31,253 nt of DNA from a virus. Shown piece by piece: positions 218 through 30,095 of the stretch. The stretch is taken from IMG/VR virus record IMGVR_UViG_3300049098_000048, positions 1 through 31,253 of that record. One strand, 5' to 3'. Both the position numbers and the translations under genes were made by a program. How positions within the stretch are numbered: position 1 is the stretch's first letter; each line of letters starts with the position of its first letter. The notes below the pieces were generated by a model that saw only the letters and a list, made by a program, of their open reading frames with translations, was not told the origin of the DNA and ran no database searches.

Positions 218-1003
218 ATGAATGGGTTCAGCCGTTTTCTAATCACCTTTGTGGTGGTTCTTTTGTTCTTCACTGTTTCGAAGTGGGCTTCCGCTTGGGA
301 CCACACAGTCATCATGTCCCCATTCGAAGGGTCTACCTATACGGTCCCATTGCCACAAGGACGAGCGTGCATTTACGTCACAGACTGTACCGAGAACATC
401 CTCACTCAGCCCACCGTCCCCTCCGCAGCCCCTCCCCCTCCCAGCCCTCCCCAAGAAGTTAGCGAAATCCCAACCCCCGGAGCTTACGGCTGGTCGTTTT
501 TTGATCCGATAGACCGGACAGAGTGGGCTTTGGAGGTTAGTGCTACGGAGGAGTCAGACTCTACTAAAGCAGAGCTGTATAAGACAGAACACGCCATCGA
601 CGGAGATCCCAACACGATCTGGCACGCCCCTTGGGTGACGCCTACGGGATACCCACACTGGATTATCGTGGATATGAAGACCCAGCACTGGGTTGATGGG
701 ATGATTATTACGCCCCGTCCGTATGATGAGACCAAAGAATACACGGTCAAAAGCAATCCATCTGAGTACGAAGTCTGGGTGAGCAACGACAAGAATGCTT
801 GGTCGCAGGTAGCCAGCGGCACACTAACGTACGAGCCTCTGGGTAGCCCCCAAAAGATTGAATTCCTCATTCCTAACCTAGTTCAATACGTCAAACTCGT
901 AATACTGAACTCCACCGGAGAGACAGAGTCAGTGACCATCAGCGAGATTGAAATCACTGAATCGACCAAAGATCTGGTCATAACTGGAGGAGGAGTATCG
1001 TGA
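218..1003 (+). CDS. Secreted or membrane-anchored discoidin (F5/8 type C) domain protein
   Basis: The protein is 261 aa. Residues 1-26 form a signal peptide or anchor: basic start, hydrophobic core at 7-21, then an ASA-like cleavage site near 24-26. Residues 62-87 are a Pro-rich linker with two nearby Cys (51 and 57). Residues 98-247 read as a discoidin-type galactose-binding-like beta-sandwich, with the typical AIDGDPNTIWHA loop, then PHWIIVDM, YEVWVSND and VKLVILNS strands. Such domains bind carbohydrate or other surface ligands, so this is likely an exported surface or periplasmic binding protein made by the phage. AGGGG at 206-210 supports the ATG at 218. The next small gene overlaps its stop. 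The tail fibre at 22661-27139 also has a discoidin-like domain. The ligand is unknown; a moron or receptor-masking role is inference only. Confidence 0.8.
   Translation: MNGFSRFLITFVVVLLFFTVSKWASAWDHTVIMSPFEGSTYTVPLPQGRACIYVTDCTENILTQPTVPSAAPPPPSPPQEVSEIPTPGAYGWSFFDPIDRTEWALEVSATEESDSTKAELYKTEHAIDGDPNTIWHAPWVTPTGYPHWIIVDMKTQHWVDGMIITPRPYDETKEYTVKSNPSEYEVWVSNDKNAWSQVASGTLTYEPLGSPQKIEFLIPNLVQYVKLVILNSTGETESVTISEIEITESTKDLVITGGGVS
986..995 (+). promoter_or_regulatory. Ribosome-binding site for the 34-codon membrane protein
   Basis: GGAGGAGGAG lies inside the end of the discoidin gene and is correctly spaced for the GTG at 1000. It is much stronger than needed by chance and is the main reason to accept the tiny gene that follows. 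Confidence 0.65.
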
Positions 1004-1418: not shown

Positions 1419-1812
1419 ATTCAGTACTTTCTCTTTTCTTCGTATCCGTGGCGCTGTAATCGACTACTTCCGTGATCGGAAGAGCGTTACGAACCCGACC
1501 CCCTATGCAACCTATGTCTCTGTAGATTTCTCAAACGAAGAGAGCAGAGTTATTTCTGGGCTGGAGCAGCAGTCTTTGGACCACCAGTTTGAACCCGCCT
1601 TGCACAATAGCATGGATCTTAACCACGCCATACAAGCTCTTGAAGTGTGGGAACGAAAACTGCTGGAACTCTATTACAGCAGAGATGAGACTCTGAAAGA
1701 GATTGGGGAACGGGCAGATGTTACAGAAGGCAGGGTGTGCCAGATACACGCCGAAGTCATAGCACGACTCCGGCGATGTATGGACACAGAACCAGACCTA
1801 GAGCTGATCTAA
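1144..1812 (+). CDS. Phage sigma-70 family (FliA-like) RNA polymerase sigma factor
   Basis: The product (222 aa) should bind host core RNA polymerase and direct it to phage promoters. Residues ~40-112 match sigma region 2, including FSTFSFLRIRGAVIDYFRD, which parallels the FliA region 2.3-2.4 sequence. Residues ~160-212 match region 4, with the helix-turn-helix TLKEIGERADVTEGRVCQIH very close to the FliA type. Only about 45 residues separate the two, too few for a full region 3. GTG 1144 is the first usable start after an in-frame TGA at 1117-1119, but it lacks a good Shine-Dalgarno, so the N-terminus is uncertain (an overlapping frame from 1104 may contribute). It is on the opposite strand from the late genes and converges on them, as expected for a regulator. 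The family call is strong; promoter specificity is inferred. Confidence 0.9.
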   Translation: MKKNEGNCSGAETWRGNRNLSKSVQTYADASHWTEEEVLIRYEAWMTFVIDRATVNLPPHYKANWKEDLEQEARIALLLCWRDYQKQKALCKFSTFSFLRIRGAVIDYFRDRKSVTNPTPYATYVSVDFSNEESRVISGLEQQSLDHQFEPALHNSMDLNHAIQALEVWERKLLELYYSRDETLKEIGERADVTEGRVCQIHAEVIARLRRCMDTEPDLELI

Positions 1813-1977
1813 AATATCCTTTCGGCGTTGATAGCCCTGCCGGATAGAACGCACTCCGTCGTAAACGCTGACACCCGGCTTGTTCGGGTCCAGCTTCTTC
1901 TTGATTTTCTTTTTCTTGTTTATCGGTTTGGTAGTAGGTAGAGGGCGACGTAGCCCCTTCATTTCTTTCGGTTGCAT
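1798..1977 (-). CDS. 59-aa Lys/Arg-rich small protein
   Basis: ATG at 1975-1977 is preceded by GAGGAG (reverse strand, spacing 6) and the frame stops with TAG at 1798-1800. The product begins MQPKEMKGLRRPLP, contains a block of seven lysines around NKKKKIKKK, and ends VYDGVRSIRQGYQRRKDIL plus DQL. It is strongly basic with no membrane segment or Cys, which suggests nucleic-acid or virion binding, but no family was recognised. It is the last gene of the minus-strand unit and converges on the sigma gene, overlapping its 3' end by 15 bases. Confidence 0.65.
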   Translation of the reverse strand: MQPKEMKGLRRPLPTTKPINKKKKIKKKLDPNKPGVSVYDGVRSIRQGYQRRKDILDQL

Positions 1978-1980
1978 AAG

Positions 1981-2118
1981 TCACTCCTCACACAGTAATC
2001 GGCAAAGCCGGTTGCAATTCCCCTTCACTTTTAGTTCGCGACAGCGTCTCTTACAGTCTTTTAACGTACCATTACCGGGGCAGCTGGAGGCATCACCGTC
2101 ACGAACGAGGAAAAAGGG
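1981..2118 (-). other. Possible -1 frameshift extension: Cys-rich tail after a CCCTTTT heptamer
   Basis: In the upstream gene's reading frame the heptamer C CCT TTT (2112-2118, reverse strand) fits the X XXY YYZ slippery pattern, so both tRNAs can re-pair after slipping back one base. The -1 frame is then open for 45 codons to TGA at 1981-1983. It encodes a tail with six Cys in a C-x8-C-x3-C-x8-C-x3-C-x3-C spacing (for example KDCKRRCREL and NCNRLCRLLC). This frame has no ATG and no plausible upstream start, so recoding would be the only obvious way to express it. It fills the otherwise empty gap between two genes and ends in the ribosome-binding site of the next gene. Expression is unproven. 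Confidence 0.3.
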
Positions 2119-2510
2119 CCACCTTTCAAGCTGATCTCACTCTCGCGCCCCTCCGTGTCAGTGATCGTTGCAAAGACGTAATACTGATCGGCTGGGTAGT
2201 TATCCACGCTCCAGCTATGGTTACAGAAGATGTCAGTCTGGACTGGACCCTCTACCAGTGTCGCTGCTGTGAACAAATCACCCCCGGAATACAGCGTGAC
2301 ATCCGCATGATCCAGCTCTGCCTCTGTAATCGGTAGCTGCTCACCGTCTGCATTCGGAGCGCGAGTTGTCGGAGGGGTACAAGATGTGTTGTGTACCAGC
2401 CCCTGCCCCTTTTCATACTCAGGGCCTTCGGCCATGACACCGAATGAAACTAAACCAGAAACCAGAAAAATCAGTGTTGTTAAAACTACTACTCTACATG
2501 TATCAGTCAT
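2061..2510 (-). CDS. Secreted protein with fibronectin-III-like fold
   Basis: The ATG at 2508-2510 is chosen because GGAGGAGAG (2516-2524) sits five bases upstream; an earlier in-frame ATG at 2553-2555 lies inside the nuclease gene. The product is 149 aa and starts with a signal peptide (MTDTCRVVVLTTLIFLVSG, hydrophobic to about residue 23, VMA-like cleavage near 25). The mature part has Fn3-like beta-strand features: LDHADVTLYSGG, WSVDNYPADQYYVFATITD, and the closing FVTVMPPAAPVMVR. Two Cys in the mature part could form a disulphide, fitting a periplasmic location. It overlaps the nuclease gene by 8 bases. Function is unknown. A -1 slippery heptamer near the end may give a longer Cys-rich form. 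Confidence 0.75.
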   Translation of the reverse strand: MTDTCRVVVLTTLIFLVSGLVSFGVMAEGPEYEKGQGLVHNTSCTPPTTRAPNADGEQLPITEAELDHADVTLYSGGDLFTAATLVEGPVQTDIFCNHSWSVDNYPADQYYVFATITDTEGRESEISLKGGPFSSFVTVMPPAAPVMVR

Positions 2511-2910
2511 TACTACTCTCCTCCATTGGAAACCACGGTTTGCGTTTGCCCCCATAATACTCTCTCGCTAGTCCCTGCGCTAACATATATTCGCCTAAAG
2601 AATCCCCATCAACATAAATAGACCCCAGAACACGACCAGCGTACTTGCCATATACAACATTATCCACCGACACAATTCCCGCTTTGAGAAACTCCTCTGC
2701 TGTTCTGGTTGCGGCGATTCCAAGCTCTTTTTCCTTTTTGTTTCGTGTCCTTGTCTCTGGGGTGTCAATCCCAAACTCTCTGACGGAAATGAGCACACGA
2801 GTGCTGGGCCATGTGCGAATATAAAGCAATGCGGTGTCGCCATCTTTTGCTCTAACCAGTTCTGCTGCGTACGGTCCATAAACAATCCCACTATTTGGTA
2901 AAACAATCAT
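2503..2910 (-). CDS. Staphylococcal nuclease-like (thermonuclease family) protein
   Basis: This 135-aa protein is the size of a minimal SNase fold. Active-site residues known for the family are visible: the DGDT loop (Asp23, Asp25), Arg44 and Asp49/Glu52 in VREFGIDTPE, and Arg93 in YGKYAGRVLG. The family hydrolyses DNA and RNA with Ca2+. No signal peptide is present, so it acts in the cytoplasm or is released at lysis; degradation of host nucleic acid or of viscous DNA at lysis are plausible roles. ATG overlaps the TGA of the DUF1353 gene (ATGA) and CGGAG precedes it. It lies in the lysis block, next to last before the secreted protein. Confidence 0.88.
   Translation of the reverse strand: MIVLPNSGIVYGPYAAELVRAKDGDTALLYIRTWPSTRVLISVREFGIDTPETRTRNKKEKELGIAATRTAEEFLKAGIVSVDNVVYGKYAGRVLGSIYVDGDSLGEYMLAQGLAREYYGGKRKPWFPMEESSND
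2516..2524 (-). promoter_or_regulatory. Ribosome-binding site fixing the start of the secreted Fn3-like protein
   Basis: GGAGGAGAG on the minus strand, five bases before the ATG at 2510, sets the start after the signal-peptide-less 15-residue upstream extension and favours the shorter, secreted form. Confidence 0.6.
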
Positions 2911-3353
2911 TGGTCATAATACTCCGGAAGTTCTTTGATAATGTTAGATGCCAGTTTCTCTTCCGGAGTCATCCAAGAGCGACTTGCCCCAAGACGTACA
3001 CCTGTATAAATAAGCTCTGCCAGTTCCTGTGAAACTCCTGCGTGCAAGTGGACTTCCATCATAGCTAGGTCTGCATCCTTGCGTGTGAATGAATCGCTGA
3101 CTATAACCAGTTGCGAGCTGTCTCTGTGCCATGAGTACAACGCATCATGTAAGGCGAATCCCCAATCTGCAGCAGTTCCCATTGGTGGCACAAATGCCCA
3201 CAGTGCCTGCGGTACGGAGCCACCATCGAATACGAATCCGCGCTTAATTGTGACGAGACGTCCGTCATTAAGGAGGAATTTAATAAGACGCAGAATAAAC
3301 CAGTGAGTATCATCTTCCTTTCTTATTTCCAGTTTGCCAGTTATTTTGCTCAT
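2907..3353 (-). CDS. DUF1353 family phage protein
   Basis: The 148-aa product carries the family's hallmark features: the central GFVFDGGSVPQALWAF, then FALHDALYSW with a conserved His-Asp, then RKDADLAMMEVHLHAGV and IYTGVRLGASRSW. DUF1353 proteins are common near phage lysis and tail genes; their activity is not established. Its ATG overlaps a possible upstream stop (ATGA), and it overlaps the nuclease gene by four bases. No strong Shine-Dalgarno precedes it (TAAGAA only), which suggests coupling to a small upstream frame (3350-3472). Confidence 0.8.
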   Translation of the reverse strand: MSKITGKLEIRKEDDTHWFILRLIKFLLNDGRLVTIKRGFVFDGGSVPQALWAFVPPMGTAADWGFALHDALYSWHRDSSQLVIVSDSFTRKDADLAMMEVHLHAGVSQELAELIYTGVRLGASRSWMTPEEKLASNIIKELPEYYDQ

Positions 3354-3472
3354 TTCTTAGGACAGAAAATCGCACACATAAATTTCCAAAACTGCGAGCT
3401 AATCCAAACCCAGATTCGGATCAGCCCGCGAGCTATAGGATTACTTCTTGTTTGGGACAACGTACTGGGCAA
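3350..3472 (-). CDS. Possible small hydrophobic/aromatic peptide coupled to the DUF1353 gene
   Basis: A frame runs across the gap between the holin-like gene and the DUF1353 gene and ends in a TGA whose last bases overlap the next ATG (ATGA), as for its real neighbours. Its C-terminal part is hydrophobic and aromatic (GLIRIWVWISSQFWKFMC, then AIFCPKK), like a short membrane or amphipathic peptide. The start is unclear: TTG at 3470-3472 inside the holin-like gene, CTG at 3422-3424, or ATG at 3377-3379 (only 9 codons) are possible and none has a good ribosome-binding site. It could instead be a +1-shifted extension of the holin-like protein, or non-coding. Confidence 0.3.
   Translation of the reverse strand: MPSTLSQTRSNPIARGLIRIWVWISSQFWKFMCAIFCPKK
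3394..3429 (-). terminator. Stem-loop between the holin-like and DUF1353 genes
   Basis: On the minus strand, GCGGGCTGATCC pairs with GGATTAGCTCGC across a 12-base loop: 12 base pairs including two G-U pairs. It is followed by CAGTTTTGG, so the T run is only four bases. This is one of the few gaps in the gene block. It may be a partial terminator, an mRNA-stability or processing element, or a structure controlling translation of the DUF1353 gene. Confidence 0.4.
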
Positions 3473-3632
3473 CGTAAGTTGCGAACCCGGCGAATGCAAT
3501 ACCGACTTCTGCCGGAATCGTTACGCCGCCAAATTCTCCTACGCCCCATGCAACCATGGTTGATAAGAAGGTCATTGCACCACCAACATTAACTTTGCGT
3601 TCTGGTGCGTAGGTCTTCACTTCGTCGTTCAT
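3441..3632 (-). CDS. Holin-like two-TM membrane protein
   Basis: The 63-aa product has a polar N-terminus, two hydrophobic segments (about 17-36 and 42-59) separated by a short turn with the motif VTIPAEVGIAFAGF, and a basic end VPNKK. This is the size and layout of class II phage holins, which open the inner membrane so that the lysozyme reaches the peptidoglycan. AGAGGT precedes the ATG. The lysozyme gene lies immediately upstream, with three bases between its TAA and this ATG. No sequence-level match to a named holin is claimed. Confidence 0.7.
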   Translation of the reverse strand: MNDEVKTYAPERKVNVGGAMTFLSTMVAWGVGEFGGVTIPAEVGIAFAGFATYVAQYVVPNKK

Positions 3633-20787: not shown

Positions 20788-22656
20788 TTAAATCTCCGTT
20801 GTTGTCGTAGTGCTGCAGCTTGAAGAGTTCTGAACAGCTTCGCTTACTGAAGCACTCAGGTTCACAGCTGTCATGGCAGCGGCTGCGAGCTGGGCCTGTA
20901 CAGTCATGATGGTCTTGCTCTTTTCGATATCCAGAGTCAGCAGGCGCAGCATCTGTTCAATATTAAGCTGGGCTTCCTTCAACTCCACATCGGTTGAAAT
21001 CTTGCCTTCTTCCAGAGCTAATTCGAACTGTCTGGAATCAGCGATAATCCGCGCCTGTTCTGCACTCAGCTCAGCTGAATAGATCTGAGCCTGTCCGTTG
21101 TAAATATCTACCCCGGCAGCAATGCGCTTGGCTTCAGCGTCCACCTCAACCCCGTACTGCTGCACGCGAGCCTTGTGCTGATCGATAAGTAGTGTGCTGT
21201 TCTGGATCTCAAGCTGAGACTGCTGGATCAACGAGTCATTGCCTGACTTGTAAGCTTCTACGAGACTAGCGAATGCATCCACCTCAGTCTTGTAGATATT
21301 GACCTTACTCTCCTCGGCGCGGACACGTTCAGCGAACAGTTTTACCTCAGTCTCCTTGGCCCCGACTTCAGCAGTGAATGCCTGCACCTGAGCTACGAAG
21401 GCATCGATCTCATTCTTATTGACCTCGACCAATGCATTTACACCATCAAGCTGACCCTTGTAGATCTCGATCTGGGTCAGCAGTGCCTGCACCCGTGAGG
21501 TGTACAGGGTGATGTATTGCTGGTTGATGTCACCAACCAATTTCTGGCCTTCGAGCTGAGCCTTGTAAATCTCGATCTCAGCCATCTCTGCTTCAATGAG
21601 CAGGCGATACACCTGAACATCAGCCAAATAGGTTTGCAGCTGAATGTTCTGGTAAGCGATCTGGGCGTTGAATATGTTAATGGAGGCGTCGATGGCATAT
21701 TTCGCAGCTTCCAGCAGGATCTGCATCTTCTGGTTGTGCAGCCCGATGTACATGTTCTCGATAGCAACGCCCTGAGCAACAGCGAAGCGGATATTCTCCA
21801 CTTCCATCTGTGCCTGCTGAATCGCAATTTCGCGGGACAGTGTATTGGAGGCGTCCTGTACTTCCTGTCTGGCTGCTGTGATCTTCTTGTCCAGCACGCC
21901 ACCCGGCAAACTGAAGCCACGCGAGGCCCAGTCGTCGGTCAGTTCCTGTACGAGTTTGGAGCCGGTGATGTCTTCGCGGGTGCGGGCCTTCTCCCAAAGA
22001 GCATCCCAAATCGCATCTGGCAGGCCAGTGCCACCAGCCATCATCTCGTTGACCTTGGCGATCAGAGTCGGCATCTGCTCGTTGTAATCCTCGTAGGTAT
22101 ACGAGAACGTATTGTCCGGAGCATCCAGATCCAGAGTGGGGGCCACACCATCGAAAGTAGGCAGCGTAGTCGTGGGGACTGCTGGGAGCGTTATGGACTC
22201 CAGAGTCGGCTCATCCGGGAGCGTGATCACCGGGGCATCTGGAATTACGATGTCAACGGAATCTGGTGGCCCCTCGGGCGCTACAGCTGTCAGGCCACCG
22301 GGGGCCGGGATAGCGGCTACATCTGGAGGAGTTGCATCCAGCGTCGGGGCAGTTCCGAAGTCCGGGGCAACCACACTTGGAACGATGACACCCCCCGGTT
22401 TATTCGGGGAGGAGAATGTCAGGTCGGGTTCATCAGGAGCATCTGGCTTGGCAAACGGAGTTCCGAGACCTTCCGGGATACTTGGAAAATCAATATCTGT
22501 GCGGATCGGGGTCAGGGAGATTTCAGACAGGTCGTCAAAAAACCCGGAAGTGGCATTTACTGCCTCGTCTGCGTACTTCTGCCAAGTAATCCAGCCATCA
22601 TTGACGATGTCACCAGCTATGTGGTCAATTAAAGCGCATTCGTTATCGATGGACAT
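20788..22656 (-). CDS. Pro-rich N-terminus plus long coiled-coil virion protein
   Basis: In this 622-aa product, residues 50-180 are rich in Pro, Asp and Thr (PDAPDEPDLTFSSPNKPGG; PAVPTTTLPTFDGVAP). Residues ~185-260 form a linker with GGTGLPDAIWDALWEKAR, and 250-605 are almost entirely helix with heptad-like hydrophobics. Aromatics fall on one heptad position from 329 to 469. The C-terminus ends in a Ser/Cys/Thr tail. Proteins of this layout (Pro-rich head, RARxREDI-like motif, GFSLPPG-like turn, long coil) recur in phage structural regions and are usually unnamed; they may form a fibrous or tail-needle-like part. AGGAGGGTG precedes the ATG. Confidence 0.65.
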   Translation of the reverse strand: MSIDNECALIDHIAGDIVNDGWITWQKYADEAVNATSGFFDDLSEISLTPIRTDIDFPSIPEGLGTPFAKPDAPDEPDLTFSSPNKPGGVIVPSVVAPDFGTAPTLDATPPDVAAIPAPGGLTAVAPEGPPDSVDIVIPDAPVITLPDEPTLESITLPAVPTTTLPTFDGVAPTLDLDAPDNTFSYTYEDYNEQMPTLIAKVNEMMAGGTGLPDAIWDALWEKARTREDITGSKLVQELTDDWASRGFSLPGGVLDKKITAARQEVQDASNTLSREIAIQQAQMEVENIRFAVAQGVAIENMYIGLHNQKMQILLEAAKYAIDASINIFNAQIAYQNIQLQTYLADVQVYRLLIEAEMAEIEIYKAQLEGQKLVGDINQQYITLYTSRVQALLTQIEIYKGQLDGVNALVEVNKNEIDAFVAQVQAFTAEVGAKETEVKLFAERVRAEESKVNIYKTEVDAFASLVEAYKSGNDSLIQQSQLEIQNSTLLIDQHKARVQQYGVEVDAEAKRIAAGVDIYNGQAQIYSAELSAEQARIIADSRQFELALEEGKISTDVELKEAQLNIEQMLRLLTLDIEKSKTIMTVQAQLAAAAMTAVNLSASVSEAVQNSSSCSTTTTTEI

Positions 22657-27145: not shown

Positions 27146-29491
27146 CTACCTGTAGTAAGGCGCACCCAGAAATCCAACTGGGTATTTAAGAAATTCATTG
27201 GTGAACTCTCCATCGAGATTATCATTCATAACTGTGATACCCACATCAGGGAGCGAAAACGCCCAGTGATCTGTAAAAGTATCGAACGCAGACACGACTC
27301 CCTGAATTCCAAAGTTCTCACTACTCTGGCGGAACGGATTAGAATCATTCATTTCTGCGTCTGAAAACATGACCAGAGTACCATGCGGAGTAATGAGTCC
27401 ACCAACCTGAGAGTAATTAGTCTCCTCATACGGATCTTCATTAGCCGGTATAGTTGGAACGAAGTCTCCAAGATTCCCCGCATCAATCCAGCATGGTGAT
27501 GGCGTAGTATTTGGTGGATCACCCTGATTACCACAGTCTACAGGCGGACTCTTCTCAAAGCTGGTAGCACTCGGGATCTCAGTCCCCCAGTACAGTACAT
27601 TGGCAGAAATACCAGTTACCGTTGCGTCAATGCCAGATCCTTCTGGACAACTACTAATACCGGGATCACACGGACCGATCACACCATCGCCATAAGCTCT
27701 GGTCGTGGTTCCACGATACACATAATTGCGGTACCAGTTGAGCGTACCTTCCGTTATGGAATTTATATAATTTTTAAAATGATAAAACGCACACCGTTCA
27801 AAACTGGGGATGACCAGAACCGAATCAGTATCCGCTGACATGGTACCTGCGTAAACAGCAACGAACTGGTTATCAATCGGGGTCATATAAGGGCGTCCCC
27901 CACCCGGAGTACTACGCTGCAACCAGAATCCCGTAGCCATGAACCCACTGATCGGTGTCGGAGATTGCTGACGAAATATACTACCGACGTATGAGTATTT
28001 CTCCTCGGTTGGGGTTGTAATATCAGATGAAAACCCGTGAAACCCGCCCATCGACCCAGTGCCAGTACGCCCTGTTGTGCACAAGGAATAATCGAAAGAA
28101 GTGGGGTAGCCATTAGTCGTAATATACGAATACCGTCTACAGGCAATGGCATCAGCCCAAGTAGTCCAAGCCCCACCCTCATCAGTCGTCACTTCCCAAG
28201 CCGTGTAGTTATAGTTCACTACACGCTCATTCCCATCGAGCGTGAAAATTGCATACATGGGAGCTGTGTAATTATCTGAAGGCTGCGTACCAATAAAGCC
28301 ATCATCTGCCCGGAAGAAGTAATGACTCTCCAAGTTACCAAACTCATCTGGTGCTTTGATGTGGTCATTATCCCCATCAAACAGAAACGGTTTTTCACCT
28401 TCTGTACCGATGTTAACCACGTACTCCTGAAAGAACAGGCGAAACAACTGGGACTTAAAATTACGCCCCTCTGGGTAATTCGTCGTTATGCCGACGAAGA
28501 TAGCCTTGTTACCGTCTGGATGGAATGACCAACCATAGTCACCTAATGCTGCGAAACTACCAATACTTGATTGGTACGTCGAAGCATCCATGAGCGTAAA
28601 CGTGACTTCGTAAATAGATGGCTGGGGTTCCAGTGCATCATACTCAGCCTTGGTGTACTCAGCGCGAGCTTCACTGAACGATGTCTGGTAGGAGAAAAAC
28701 CCAGCCTCTTCAACTTCCGGGGGCATACTACCGGGTTTTAAGTCATTTGCTCTTTCAAAAACACTAACCTCGTAGTCACCCATAACCTGCATACGAATGC
28801 CAGTAGAAGCAGACACATCGTATAACCAGATACGTATTTTATCGTTAGCTAGTGTTTCCAGCCGAATACCATTGCGCTTATGATCGAACTGGGGGTACAA
28901 CCCCATGCCCAGCTGCAGCTGCACCAGCTCACGCAATTTGCCTGAAAACTTACCTGCGGAGAAACCGAGAATCCAGCGTTCCGGGACACCTTCTCCCTTG
29001 GTGAACCACGGAGCTTCTGTTAGGCCAGTCTCAGTGTCGGGATCATAAGCCTCGTAGTTGTTGTATAACCACCGTAGGGGTGGCATTGCAGGATCGACTT
29101 TAGCACCGTCAATAGAAGAACCCAGCCCCTTGTCGAGGTTTTGGTCTGGGTTATACACCTCGTAAATAGAAGGCCAGTAACGTAAGTACCAATCAGTCTG
29201 GGCTGCGCTGTAACGCGGCTCGAACAAACCGCTGTACAGTTTGTTGGTCTTGGGTAATTCTTCCTCCCCCTCCAGAGGGACGAAGATTTCTATGATGTCG
29301 TAACCGGGGAGAGCCGTAACCTTAATGGTCTTTTCGCGGTCCCGATATTGGTATGAGGGATTTTTGTACTGCCCCAGCTTCTCGTTTCGCTCAATCGTCT
29401 GGGCGAGCAACTTACGAGCGAATTTCAGGTAATGAACGCCCTTGTCCCTATCACCCCTGTAAATAATCTGAGATGGTTTGAATTCATTCAT
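27146..29491 (-). CDS. Large virion structural protein of unknown fold
   Basis: ATG at 29489-29491 is used (781 aa); a TTG five codons earlier is less likely, and neither has a clear ribosome-binding site. The start overlaps the upstream gene by 8 bases, so coupling is likely. The N-terminal ~400 residues include WYLRYWPSIYEVYNPDQN and WFTKGEGVPERWILGFS, and the protein is rich in aromatic and Gly/Asp/Asn residues without signal peptide or membrane segment. The C-terminal third has a Cys-containing insert (DPGISSCPEGS; PPVDCGNQGD). It lies directly before the fibre gene, so it is probably a tail component, but no family was recognised. Confidence 0.6.
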   Translation of the reverse strand: MNEFKPSQIIYRGDRDKGVHYLKFARKLLAQTIERNEKLGQYKNPSYQYRDREKTIKVTALPGYDIIEIFVPLEGEEELPKTNKLYSGLFEPRYSAAQTDWYLRYWPSIYEVYNPDQNLDKGLGSSIDGAKVDPAMPPLRWLYNNYEAYDPDTETGLTEAPWFTKGEGVPERWILGFSAGKFSGKLRELVQLQLGMGLYPQFDHKRNGIRLETLANDKIRIWLYDVSASTGIRMQVMGDYEVSVFERANDLKPGSMPPEVEEAGFFSYQTSFSEARAEYTKAEYDALEPQPSIYEVTFTLMDASTYQSSIGSFAALGDYGWSFHPDGNKAIFVGITTNYPEGRNFKSQLFRLFFQEYVVNIGTEGEKPFLFDGDNDHIKAPDEFGNLESHYFFRADDGFIGTQPSDNYTAPMYAIFTLDGNERVVNYNYTAWEVTTDEGGAWTTWADAIACRRYSYITTNGYPTSFDYSLCTTGRTGTGSMGGFHGFSSDITTPTEEKYSYVGSIFRQQSPTPISGFMATGFWLQRSTPGGGRPYMTPIDNQFVAVYAGTMSADTDSVLVIPSFERCAFYHFKNYINSITEGTLNWYRNYVYRGTTTRAYGDGVIGPCDPGISSCPEGSGIDATVTGISANVLYWGTEIPSATSFEKSPPVDCGNQGDPPNTTPSPCWIDAGNLGDFVPTIPANEDPYEETNYSQVGGLITPHGTLVMFSDAEMNDSNPFRQSSENFGIQGVVSAFDTFTDHWAFSLPDVGITVMNDNLDGEFTNEFLKYPVGFLGAPYYR

Positions 29492-30095
29492 CGAAGAAAT
29501 CGACAAAGCCAGAGTCGATCATCGCAGCTACTTCAAGATCAGAAGCGTTGCTGATCGCTTTTAAGCCTTCCTCGACTTTACGCATGACAAAGTTATATGC
29601 CATAACGGAGTCCTCGATCAGGCGTGGCAATCCCTCGTACGGAATTGTAACGGAAATGTAAACGCCTTCTATCGTCCGGGCTGTACTGACACAGTTCTGC
29701 TGCAATGCGTGGCAATTAAGCCGATGGATCTGGTCGAGGTGAGAATTGGAAAAGAACATGACCTCACCCATCACAGCGGATGAAAAGTCACGTTCAGCAA
29801 ACATCTTGGCAAACGCACGGAGCTGGCCCATAGCGTATTGCCGTTTACCAGCTATATGCCCACCATGATGGACTTTGATAACGACACTACGTTCTGGCAG
29901 GAACATGTAACCGTACGGTGTAGGCACCGTAGTAGCCATGTCTACTGGGAACCAGTTATAACGTCGAACGTCCTTGGGCTGGAGGTTATGAAAGCCAACG
30001 ACGTTGCCCCAGCTATGGGGCAACGTCCTCGGACCATCAAGAATATCACCGGTTTTCGGGTCTACCCGGCAATACAGCCTGTCGTCATTAGCCAC
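29484..30095 (-). CDS. Phage structural protein, 203 aa
   Basis: GTG at 30093-30095 is preferred: it gives an N-terminus MANDDRLYCRVDPKTGDILD, placed five bases after the upstream TAA. An upstream ATG at 30144-30146 or 30153-30155 would extend 17-20 residues into the preceding gene. The product contains LPHSWGNVVGFHNLQPKDV and NWFPVDMATTV, a pattern seen in short proteins linked to tail fibres, then VVIKVHHGGHIAGKRQYAMG with several His, and a C-terminal helix. No ribosome-binding site stands out. The role is unknown, and fibre assembly or adaptor is only a guess. Confidence 0.55.
   Translation of the reverse strand: MANDDRLYCRVDPKTGDILDGPRTLPHSWGNVVGFHNLQPKDVRRYNWFPVDMATTVPTPYGYMFLPERSVVIKVHHGGHIAGKRQYAMGQLRAFAKMFAERDFSSAVMGEVMFFSNSHLDQIHRLNCHALQQNCVSTARTIEGVYISVTIPYEGLPRLIEDSVMAYNFVMRKVEEGLKAISNASDLEVAAMIDSGFVDFFDE

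What the first reader, a model, noticed from the sequence alone, without database searches (positions are those of the whole stretch)
1981..2118. Slippery heptamer CCCTTTT leading into a six-cysteine tail
In the frame of the secreted Fn3-like gene, C CCT TTT allows clean -1 slippage, and the -1 frame is open for 45 codons with six Cys in a regular spacing. The frame has no ATG of its own and fills the only gap before the next gene. If real, the phage would make a minor secreted form with a disulphide-rich end. I did not see an obvious stimulatory pseudoknot, and chance cannot be excluded.
Basis: partly seen in the sequence, partly recalled or inferred. Interest (0 to 1): 0.55.

Follow-up and report, generated by a model that had tools for sequence, protein, structure and literature searches.

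The report
Frameshift adds cysteine-rich tail to phage protein
A bacteriophage gene for an apparently exported protein carries a slippery site where some ribosomes probably slip back one base and add a six-cysteine tail, and a diverged relative keeps both the slip site and the cysteine pattern, so it looks selected rather than accidental.

Summary
The gene is on the minus strand (2061-2510). Its in-frame heptamer C CCT TTT (2112-2118) enters a -1 frame open for 45 codons with six Cys.

The decisive evidence is the one relative found (L002, a 67-kb IMG/VR record). Its syntenic gene is only about 34% identical. At the aligned Pro-Phe it has C CCT TTC, and its -1 frame is open with the same framework (Cx6Cx3Cx7Cx3Cx3C against Cx8Cx3Cx8Cx3Cx3C). 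Four of six Cys codons differ synonymously; the nine gapless linker codons are at chance identity. These are the only two C_CCU_UUY heptamers in frame in 11,895 codons of 33 genes. Neither -1 frame has a start codon that could make the whole tail. Both tails run to the next gene.

I conclude that -1 frameshifting very probably makes a minor form with a disulphide-braced helical-hairpin tail. It rests on two genomes, sequence searches alone do not link the two genes strongly, and there is no expression data. Function is unknown; the 'Fn3' label has no profile support.

The parts
2061..2510 (-). 0-frame gene: 149 aa, hydrophobic N-terminal stretch that looks like a signal peptide, ending ...GGPFSSFVTVMPPAAPVMVR
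   Evidence: ORF; homologue L002:7477-7860 (BLASTP E 1e-5 as a single comparison; about 34% in the alignment); same place after the SNase gene in both records
2112..2118 (-). slippery heptamer C CCT TTT (P-site CCT, A-site TTT); in the relative C CCT TTC
   Evidence: with its L002 counterpart the only C_CCU_UUY in frame in 11,895 codons of 33 genes; both heptamers named among shift-prone motifs in E. coli (PMC4066793)
1981..2118 (-). -1 frame: 45 codons PFFLVRDGDASSCPGNGTLKDCKRRCRELKVKGNCNRLCRLLCEE and stop; framework Cx8Cx3Cx8Cx3Cx3C
   Evidence: counterpart L002:7806-7967; AlphaFold2 two-helix hairpin, mean pLDDT 66
2094..2106 (-). 5' arm of a 13-bp stem, 5 nt after the heptamer (GUUCGUGACGGUG)
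2034..2046 (-). 3' arm of the stem (CGCUGUCGCGAAC), beyond the 0-frame stop
2061..2063 (-). 0-frame stop TAA that ends the unshifted product
1984..1989 (-). GAGGAG, last two codons of the tail and Shine-Dalgarno-like site of the next gene
   Evidence: read from sequence
1798..1977 (-). next gene, 59 aa basic protein, 71% identical to its L002 counterpart in the alignment
2503..2910 (-). upstream neighbour, staphylococcal-nuclease-like gene, 88% identical in L002; overlaps the 0-frame gene by 8 nt

Best explanation
Ribosomes that translate the protein at 2061-2510 (minus strand) reach C CCU UUU. There a minority of the peptidyl-tRNA(Pro) and aminoacyl-tRNA(Phe) pairs re-pair one base back (CCC UUU), helped in this phage by a 13-bp stem 5 nt downstream. 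Unshifted ribosomes read 16 more codons, a stretch with a proline-rich end, and stop at UAA. Shifted ribosomes read 43 more codons and append a six-Cys segment that, after export, probably folds as a disulphide-braced helical hairpin. The phage would thus make two exported forms in a set ratio from one gene. Shown by sequence: heptamer, open -1 frame, lack of a start codon for the whole tail, conservation of heptamer and Cys framework in a diverged relative, and the stem. Inferred: that slippage happens, how often, export, the disulphides and the function. My guess for function is a fast-evolving binding or inhibitory module aimed at the cell envelope or at competitors.
For: (1) L002 has C CCT TTC at the aligned G-x-P-F-x-S and an open -1 frame with the same six-Cys framework. 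(2) 4 of 6 Cys codons differ synonymously, while the nine gapless linker codons share 7 of 27 bases, which is chance level (codons). (3) Framework: 0 hits in 60 million random codons and 0 in 1,399,734 unselected real codons. (4) The two C_CCU_UUY heptamers are the only ones in frame in 11,895 codons (22 window and 11 L002 genes, my gene calls). Of 27 in-frame X_XXY_YYZ heptamers in 24 window genes, 2 give a -1 product that passes the 0-frame stop: this one by 80 nt, the other by 8 nt. (5) No table-11 start codon up to the end of Cys3 in the window (first: GTG between Cys3 and Cys4) or up to the end of Cys2 in L002 (first: ATT). (6) Both tails reach the next gene: a 3-nt gap here, an ATGA overlap in L002, in place of 83- and 103-nt gaps. 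(7) Window stem: -19.7 kcal/mol, 7 of 6,223 positions as good, possibly counting the stem itself; 16 of 2,000 shuffles. (8) C_CC.U_UU.U and C_CC.U_UU.C are shift-prone in E. coli (PMC4066793).
Against: Only two genomes. The homology of the two genes rests on synteny, one pairwise BLASTP (E 1e-5, N-terminal half) and a DNA alignment z of 3.6; P0001 searched against the relative's own record did not find that gene at E <= 1, nor did the collection scan. Tail against tail by BLASTP is not significant (E 0.83); the similarity is mainly the Cys spacing (1 of 1,000 shuffles reached the BLOSUM alignment score). The stem: folding a longer stretch (1981-2106) is ordinary (z -0.53, 59 of 200 shuffles as good) and so is 2051-2106 (z 1.37); only 2030-2106 stands out (z -3.1, 2 of 200). 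The best closed fold near the site is a different one and is matched at 15% of 60 positions. The L002 stem (6+4+2 bp) is not exceptional (5.8% of positions, 183 of 2,000 shuffles). The first 60 nt after the spacer are not unusually structured in either phage. No upstream SD-like stimulator was evident. The tail's charge is not conserved (+3.9 against -1.1). The AlphaFold2 tail model is of modest confidence with no PDB match at E <= 0.001. No expression data.
Confidence: 0.82

Rival explanations
1. Chance: a random slippery heptamer beside a random open frame with cysteines; nothing is made.
For: In-frame X_XXY_YYZ heptamers are not rare (29 in 11,895 codons). The first 60 nt after the spacer are not unusually folded. 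Only two genomes; tail-tail BLASTP E 0.83.
Against: Same heptamer class at the aligned codons and same Cys framework in a gene diverged to about 34% identity; strict framework 0 hits in 60 million random and 1.4 million unselected real codons.
Confidence: 0.05
2. The Cys part is a separate small protein made by re-initiation after the 0-frame stop, from GTG (MKGNCNRLCRLLCEE in the window) or ATG (MRGIQFCEPRCNLFCTPDWQWDKLKQL in L002).
For: Both records have a start-like codon between Cys3 and Cys4 followed by [K/R]-G, and re-initiation near a stop codon is common in packed phage operons (general knowledge).
Against: It leaves Cys1-Cys3, the conserved heptamer and the open -1 frame upstream of the stop unexplained. 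No convincing Shine-Dalgarno site stands before either codon (read). It would make a three-Cys peptide without a signal sequence.
Confidence: 0.05
3. Frameshifting matters mainly for translational coupling: shifted ribosomes end at the next gene's start and feed it; the tail sequence is a by-product.
For: The tail ends 3 nt before the next ATG in the window and overlaps it (ATGA) in L002.
Against: A by-product would not keep six Cys at matching spacing while the linkers are randomised. The window's next gene has its own GAGGAG site. The downstream genes differ: a 59-aa protein here, an inserted F5/8-type gene in L002.
Confidence: 0.05
4. Transcriptional slippage on the T run, not ribosomal slippage, gives access to the -1 frame.
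For: The window has a run of five T after CCC.
Against: The relative has only TTT followed by CG at the same place.
Confidence: 0.02

Closest known systems
C-terminal Ig-like extensions of phage structural proteins made by programmed frameshifting (reviewed in PMC5009743, passages seen; Fraser et al. 2006 cited there, not read)
   Same: One phage gene gives a main product and a minor C-terminally extended form through a slip near the 3' end.
   Different: The extension is a short six-Cys segment, not an Ig-like domain; the base protein looks exported and matches no known coat or tail protein family; the gene lies after the lysozyme gene.
Phage tail assembly chaperone G/GT frameshift (lambda type; PMC5009743, passages seen)
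   Same: -1 slippage on a heptamer close to the 3' end of the first frame.
   Different: The next genes are a 59-aa gene and a convergent sigma-factor gene, not a tape measure; the product appears exported; the heptamer is C CCU UUY. A neighbour two genes upstream (2907-3353) does match a PHROG labelled 'tail assembly chaperone', but this gene does not.
Alpha-hairpinins, plant CX3C-Xn-CX3C peptides (PMC7191063, passages seen)
   Same: Cys2-Cys5 of the tail form CX3C-X7/8-CX3C; AlphaFold2 gives two helices joined by a turn.
   Different: Six Cys rather than four, no sequence relationship found, phage origin; likely convergent.
Ole e 6 pollen allergen (1ss3)
   Same: Best but insignificant PDB sequence match of the L002 tail, E 0.35, with aligned Cx3C...Cx3Cx3C.
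   Different: Not significant, and not among the matches of the window's tail; plant protein; no homology claimed.

Membership tests
-1 programmed ribosomal frameshift signal | X_XXY_YYZ heptamer in the 0 frame | tested here: met
   C CCT TTT at 2112-2118; C CCT TTC in L002
-1 programmed ribosomal frameshift signal | site and -1 product conserved in homologues | tested here: met
   1 of 1 homologous genes found (L002); no further homologues were found
-1 programmed ribosomal frameshift signal | -1 frame cannot be reached by ordinary initiation | tested here: met
   for the whole tail: first table-11 start is GTG between Cys3 and Cys4 (window) or ATT just after Cys2 (L002)
-1 programmed ribosomal frameshift signal | downstream structure a few nt after the site | tested here: inconclusive
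   perfect 13-bp stem, 5-nt spacer in the window, but ordinary energies in other fold windows; weak in L002
-1 programmed ribosomal frameshift signal | upstream Shine-Dalgarno-like stimulator | tested here: not met
   best anti-SD pairing about -3 kcal/mol in both; an optional feature
-1 programmed ribosomal frameshift signal | frameshift product detected | not testable with these tools
   needs a reporter or mass spectrometry
Frameshift-encoded Ig-like phage extensions | extension is an Ig-like domain on a virion protein | tested here: not met
   extension is a short Cys-rich helical segment without an Ig-like match; virion presence of the base protein was not tested
Alpha-hairpinin | CX3C-Xn-CX3C, four Cys only | tested here: not met
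   motif present but six Cys
Alpha-hairpinin | helix-loop-helix fold | tested here: inconclusive
   AlphaFold2 helices 19-28 and 35-43, mean pLDDT 66; no PDB fold match at E <= 0.001
   0 Pfam and 0 NCBIfam families at E <= 1 for both homologues; model of the base protein unusable, mean pLDDT 41
Phage tail assembly chaperone G/GT | lies just before the tape-measure gene | tested here: not met
   lies between an SNase-like gene and a 59-aa gene that is followed by a convergent sigma-factor gene

The most novel reading that the evidence does not exclude
A phage exports a fast-evolving protein in two forms, with a conserved -1 frameshift setting the share that carries a disulphide-braced mini-domain in which little but the cysteines is conserved. 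This would be a frameshift-dosed, exported scaffold module (binder, inhibitor or toxin-like) rather than a virion or tail-assembly extension.
Probability: 0.45. Interest if true: 0.75.

Novelty: new variant of a known kind. Interest (0 to 1): 0.62.

Why it matters
Well-known phage frameshifts serve tail assembly or decorate virion proteins (PMC5009743, passages). Here the comparison points to a frameshift that sets the dose of a Cys-rich module on an apparently exported, rapidly diverging protein. It would widen what phages use recoding for. It also shows how coding sequence without a start codon is easily missed by gene callers, and it gives a small signal (about 90 nt) that can be tested in E. 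coli.

Tried and rejected
Homologue searches that found nothing new: P0001 in viral contigs and phages and, at E <= 1, in the relative's own record; the L002 homologue in viral contigs (itself only) and phages (none); SNase, sigma and 59-aa neighbours in viral contigs (only the L002 record); sigma and SNase in genome contigs (none); sigma in phages (none). SNase in phages gave 451 records, all below 60% identity, 20 of them listed, none followed up for this gene. The tail sequences in phages gave only insignificant hits (E 3, E 2). Of 34 loci with a relative of the 614-aa neighbour protein, one is the L002 record; the other 33 records gave 0 matches to the two-row profile and one weak sigma match. 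Two annotated phages related through the 622-aa protein, MW202615 and MT152150 (first 50,000 bases of each), list other genes around their lysis functions.

Rejected or left open: the 'Fn3' label (no profile support). A pseudoknot: loop-downstream pairing exists on paper but was not tested against a null. Terminator or promoter in the gap: 0 found. A closed-segment energy test over 60 positions per source did not discriminate (15% and 17%). GASA (E 0.054, 14.1 bits against a cut-off of 27) and Ole e 6 (E 0.35) are too weak to name a family.

One search examined 80 of the 120 stretches; one search examined all 120. My note says wrongly that no start codon precedes Cys4 in the window; a GTG does, and the report is corrected for it.

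Full report
What was checked. The window is a 31,253-base IMG/VR virus record. The gene in question runs on the minus strand from 2510 to 2061 and makes 149 aa. CCCTTTT lies at 2112-2118, read C CCT TTT in the gene's frame, and the -1 frame from there is open for 45 codons to TGA at 1981-1983. It holds six Cys spaced Cx8Cx3Cx8Cx3Cx3C. Upstream, the -1 frame is closed by TGA six codons before the heptamer. From that stop through Cys3 it contains none of the seven table-11 start codons; the first is a GTG between Cys3 and Cys4. The complete tail can therefore be made only by ribosomes that arrive in the 0 frame.

Context. The gene follows, on the same strand, genes with matches to a phage lysozyme, a DUF1353 protein (which also matches a PHROG labelled 'tail assembly chaperone') and a staphylococcal nuclease, and overlaps the last by 8 nt. 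It has a hydrophobic N-terminus that looks like a signal peptide (hydropathy; no signal-peptide program was run). Its body has no Pfam or NCBIfam match at E <= 1 and one weak PHROG match (E 0.1), and the AlphaFold2 model is unusable (mean pLDDT 41). The 'Fn3-like' label is therefore a reading by eye. A weak resemblance to the N-terminal part of a second L002 protein (BLASTP E 0.18; hhalign E 0.0024 but probability 12%) does not settle it.

The relative. A search with the lysozyme found a 67,281-base record (IMGVR_UViG_3300028844_003150, locus L002) that shares the gene order. Protein identities are 90% for the lysozyme, 88% for SNase, 71% for the 59-aa gene and 65% for the sigma factor. The gene in question is the outlier: about 34% in the alignment and BLASTP E 1e-5 over the N-terminal half as a single comparison. 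It was not recovered when P0001 was searched against the whole record at E <= 1 or against the collection, so the link rests on position, that pairwise match, and the shared ends of the protein. At the aligned motif (G-G-P-F-S-S here, G-V-P-F-E-S there) L002 has C CCT TTC. Its -1 frame is open through and past the 0-frame stop and reads PFRVEVSSTTQTPCYSGVGTCIQDCEMRGIQFCEPRCNLFCTPDWQWDKLKQL, with framework Cx6Cx3Cx7Cx3Cx3C. The first table-11 start codon there is the ATT just after Cys2.

Is it selected? At the six Cys codons both records have TGY, and the third base differs in 4 of 6. The nine codons in the three linkers that align without gaps agree at 7 of 27 bases, which is chance. Whole-region DNA alignment is barely above shuffles (z 2.4 from the heptamer on, 1.6 after the 0-frame stop), while the SNase gene stands at 81% DNA identity. 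The pattern is thus held at protein level. BLASTP of the two tails alone is not significant (E 0.83); a global BLOSUM alignment score was reached by 1 of 1,000 shuffles. A strict regex for the framework had 0 hits in 60 million random codons and 0 in 1,399,734 six-frame codons from loci that had not been selected for it. With the 120 Cys-pattern-selected loci included, there were 29 hits in 3,562,276 codons, all in those loci.

The heptamer. In 22 window genes and 11 L002 genes (11,895 codons, my own gene calls) there are 29 in-frame X_XXY_YYZ heptamers but only two C_CCU_UUY, and these are the two aligned ones, their CCT codons being the 18th and 17th before the 0-frame stop. In 24 window genes, 27 in-frame heptamers were listed; a shift on 2 of them would pass the 0-frame stop, this one by 80 nt and CCCAAAC near the end of 3441-3632 by 8 nt. 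In E. coli, C_CC.U_UU.U is listed with more than 0.10% frameshifting without stimulators, C_CC.U_UU.C with 'high level frameshifting', and H_HH.U_UU.Y among the most efficient classes (PMC4066793; sections 17 and 20 read whole, other passages by term search).

The stimulator. In the window a perfect 13-bp stem (GUUCGUGACGGUG with CGCUGUCGCGAAC, 47-nt loop) starts 5 nt after the heptamer. Its stacking energy is -19.7 kcal/mol, reached at 7 of 6,223 tested positions of the strand, which may include the stem itself. With a looser duplex score it is matched at 1.0% of positions and in 16 of 2,000 shuffles. Against it: 2030-2106 folds better than its shuffles (z -3.1, 2 of 200), but 1981-2106 (z -0.53, 59 of 200) and 2051-2106 (z 1.37) do not, and the best closed fold found near the site is another one. 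In L002 a 6+4+2-bp stem begins 4 nt after the heptamer but is ordinary (5.8% of positions; 183 of 2,000 shuffles). The first 60 nt after the spacer are not unusual in either. No Shine-Dalgarno-like stimulator stands out.

Packing. Without the tail there are gaps of 83 nt (window) and 103 nt (L002) before the next gene. With it the gap is 3 nt here, and in L002 the tail's TGA overlaps the next gene's ATG as ATGA. Other gaps of 87, 143 and 187 nt exist in the window's operon, so this is only supporting evidence.

The tail. AlphaFold2 on the two-row alignment gives two short helices (residues 19-28 and 35-43) at mean pLDDT 66, with no PDB fold match at E <= 0.001. A CX3C on each helix is the alpha-hairpinin motif (PMC7191063, passages), but those have four Cys and no relationship in sequence was found. 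Charge is not conserved (+3.9 against -1.1). The domain thus appears to be a disulphide scaffold whose surface varies.

Mechanism, with likelihoods. That the -1 frame is selected protein-coding sequence: about 0.92. That it is reached by -1 ribosomal slippage at the heptamer: about 0.85. That the product is exported and disulphide-bonded: about 0.7. Function is a guess: a module for binding or blocking something at the cell envelope or a competitor, suggested by rapid divergence and by neighbouring proteins with F5/8-type domains.

What weakens the case. Two genomes only. All eight viral scans and both genome scans are spent, and no third homologue was found. No product has been observed.

Novelty. 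Frameshift-made C-terminal extensions are known in phages, chiefly Ig-like domains on coat and tail proteins and the tail chaperone (PMC5009743, passages; PMC10885494, passages; PMC3711429, one passage). The phage examples in the passages I saw were structural, assembly, regulatory, enzyme or lysis genes. I saw no Cys-rich extension on an exported phage protein in the rows shown for searches, a limited library. I therefore rate it a new variant of a known kind.

Noticed in passing
L002:7964-8800: The relative carries an extra gene with an F5/8 type C domain and a signal-like N-terminus, inserted exactly after the Cys tail (ATGA overlap), absent from this place in the window.
   Followed up: partly
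window 2907-3353 and L002:6632-7084: The DUF1353 gene sits in the same place in both phages but is nearly unrelated in sequence (about 22%, E 0.009), although its neighbours are 84-88% identical: a second fast-changing or swapped gene.
   Followed up: no
L002:11010-11954 (minus strand): The relative's record encodes a glutaminase-family protein that covers the whole Pfam profile (PF04960, E 8.4e-93); in my judgement unusual cargo for a phage.
   Followed up: partly
window 20788-22656: A 622-aa protein is about 30% identical to structural or hypothetical proteins of F116/LKA5-like Pseudomonas phages (37 of 41 records).
   Followed up: partly
window 3441-3632 (minus strand): CCCAAAC lies in frame at codon 60 of 64; a -1 shift would end 8 nt beyond the normal stop.
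   Followed up: no
window 218-1003: F5/8 type C (discoidin-like) protein with a signal-like N-terminus on the plus strand, 58% identical in L002.
   Followed up: no
window 27146-29506: The listed TTG start is probably wrong; an ATG that overlaps the end of the upstream gene is present here and in the relative.
   Followed up: partly
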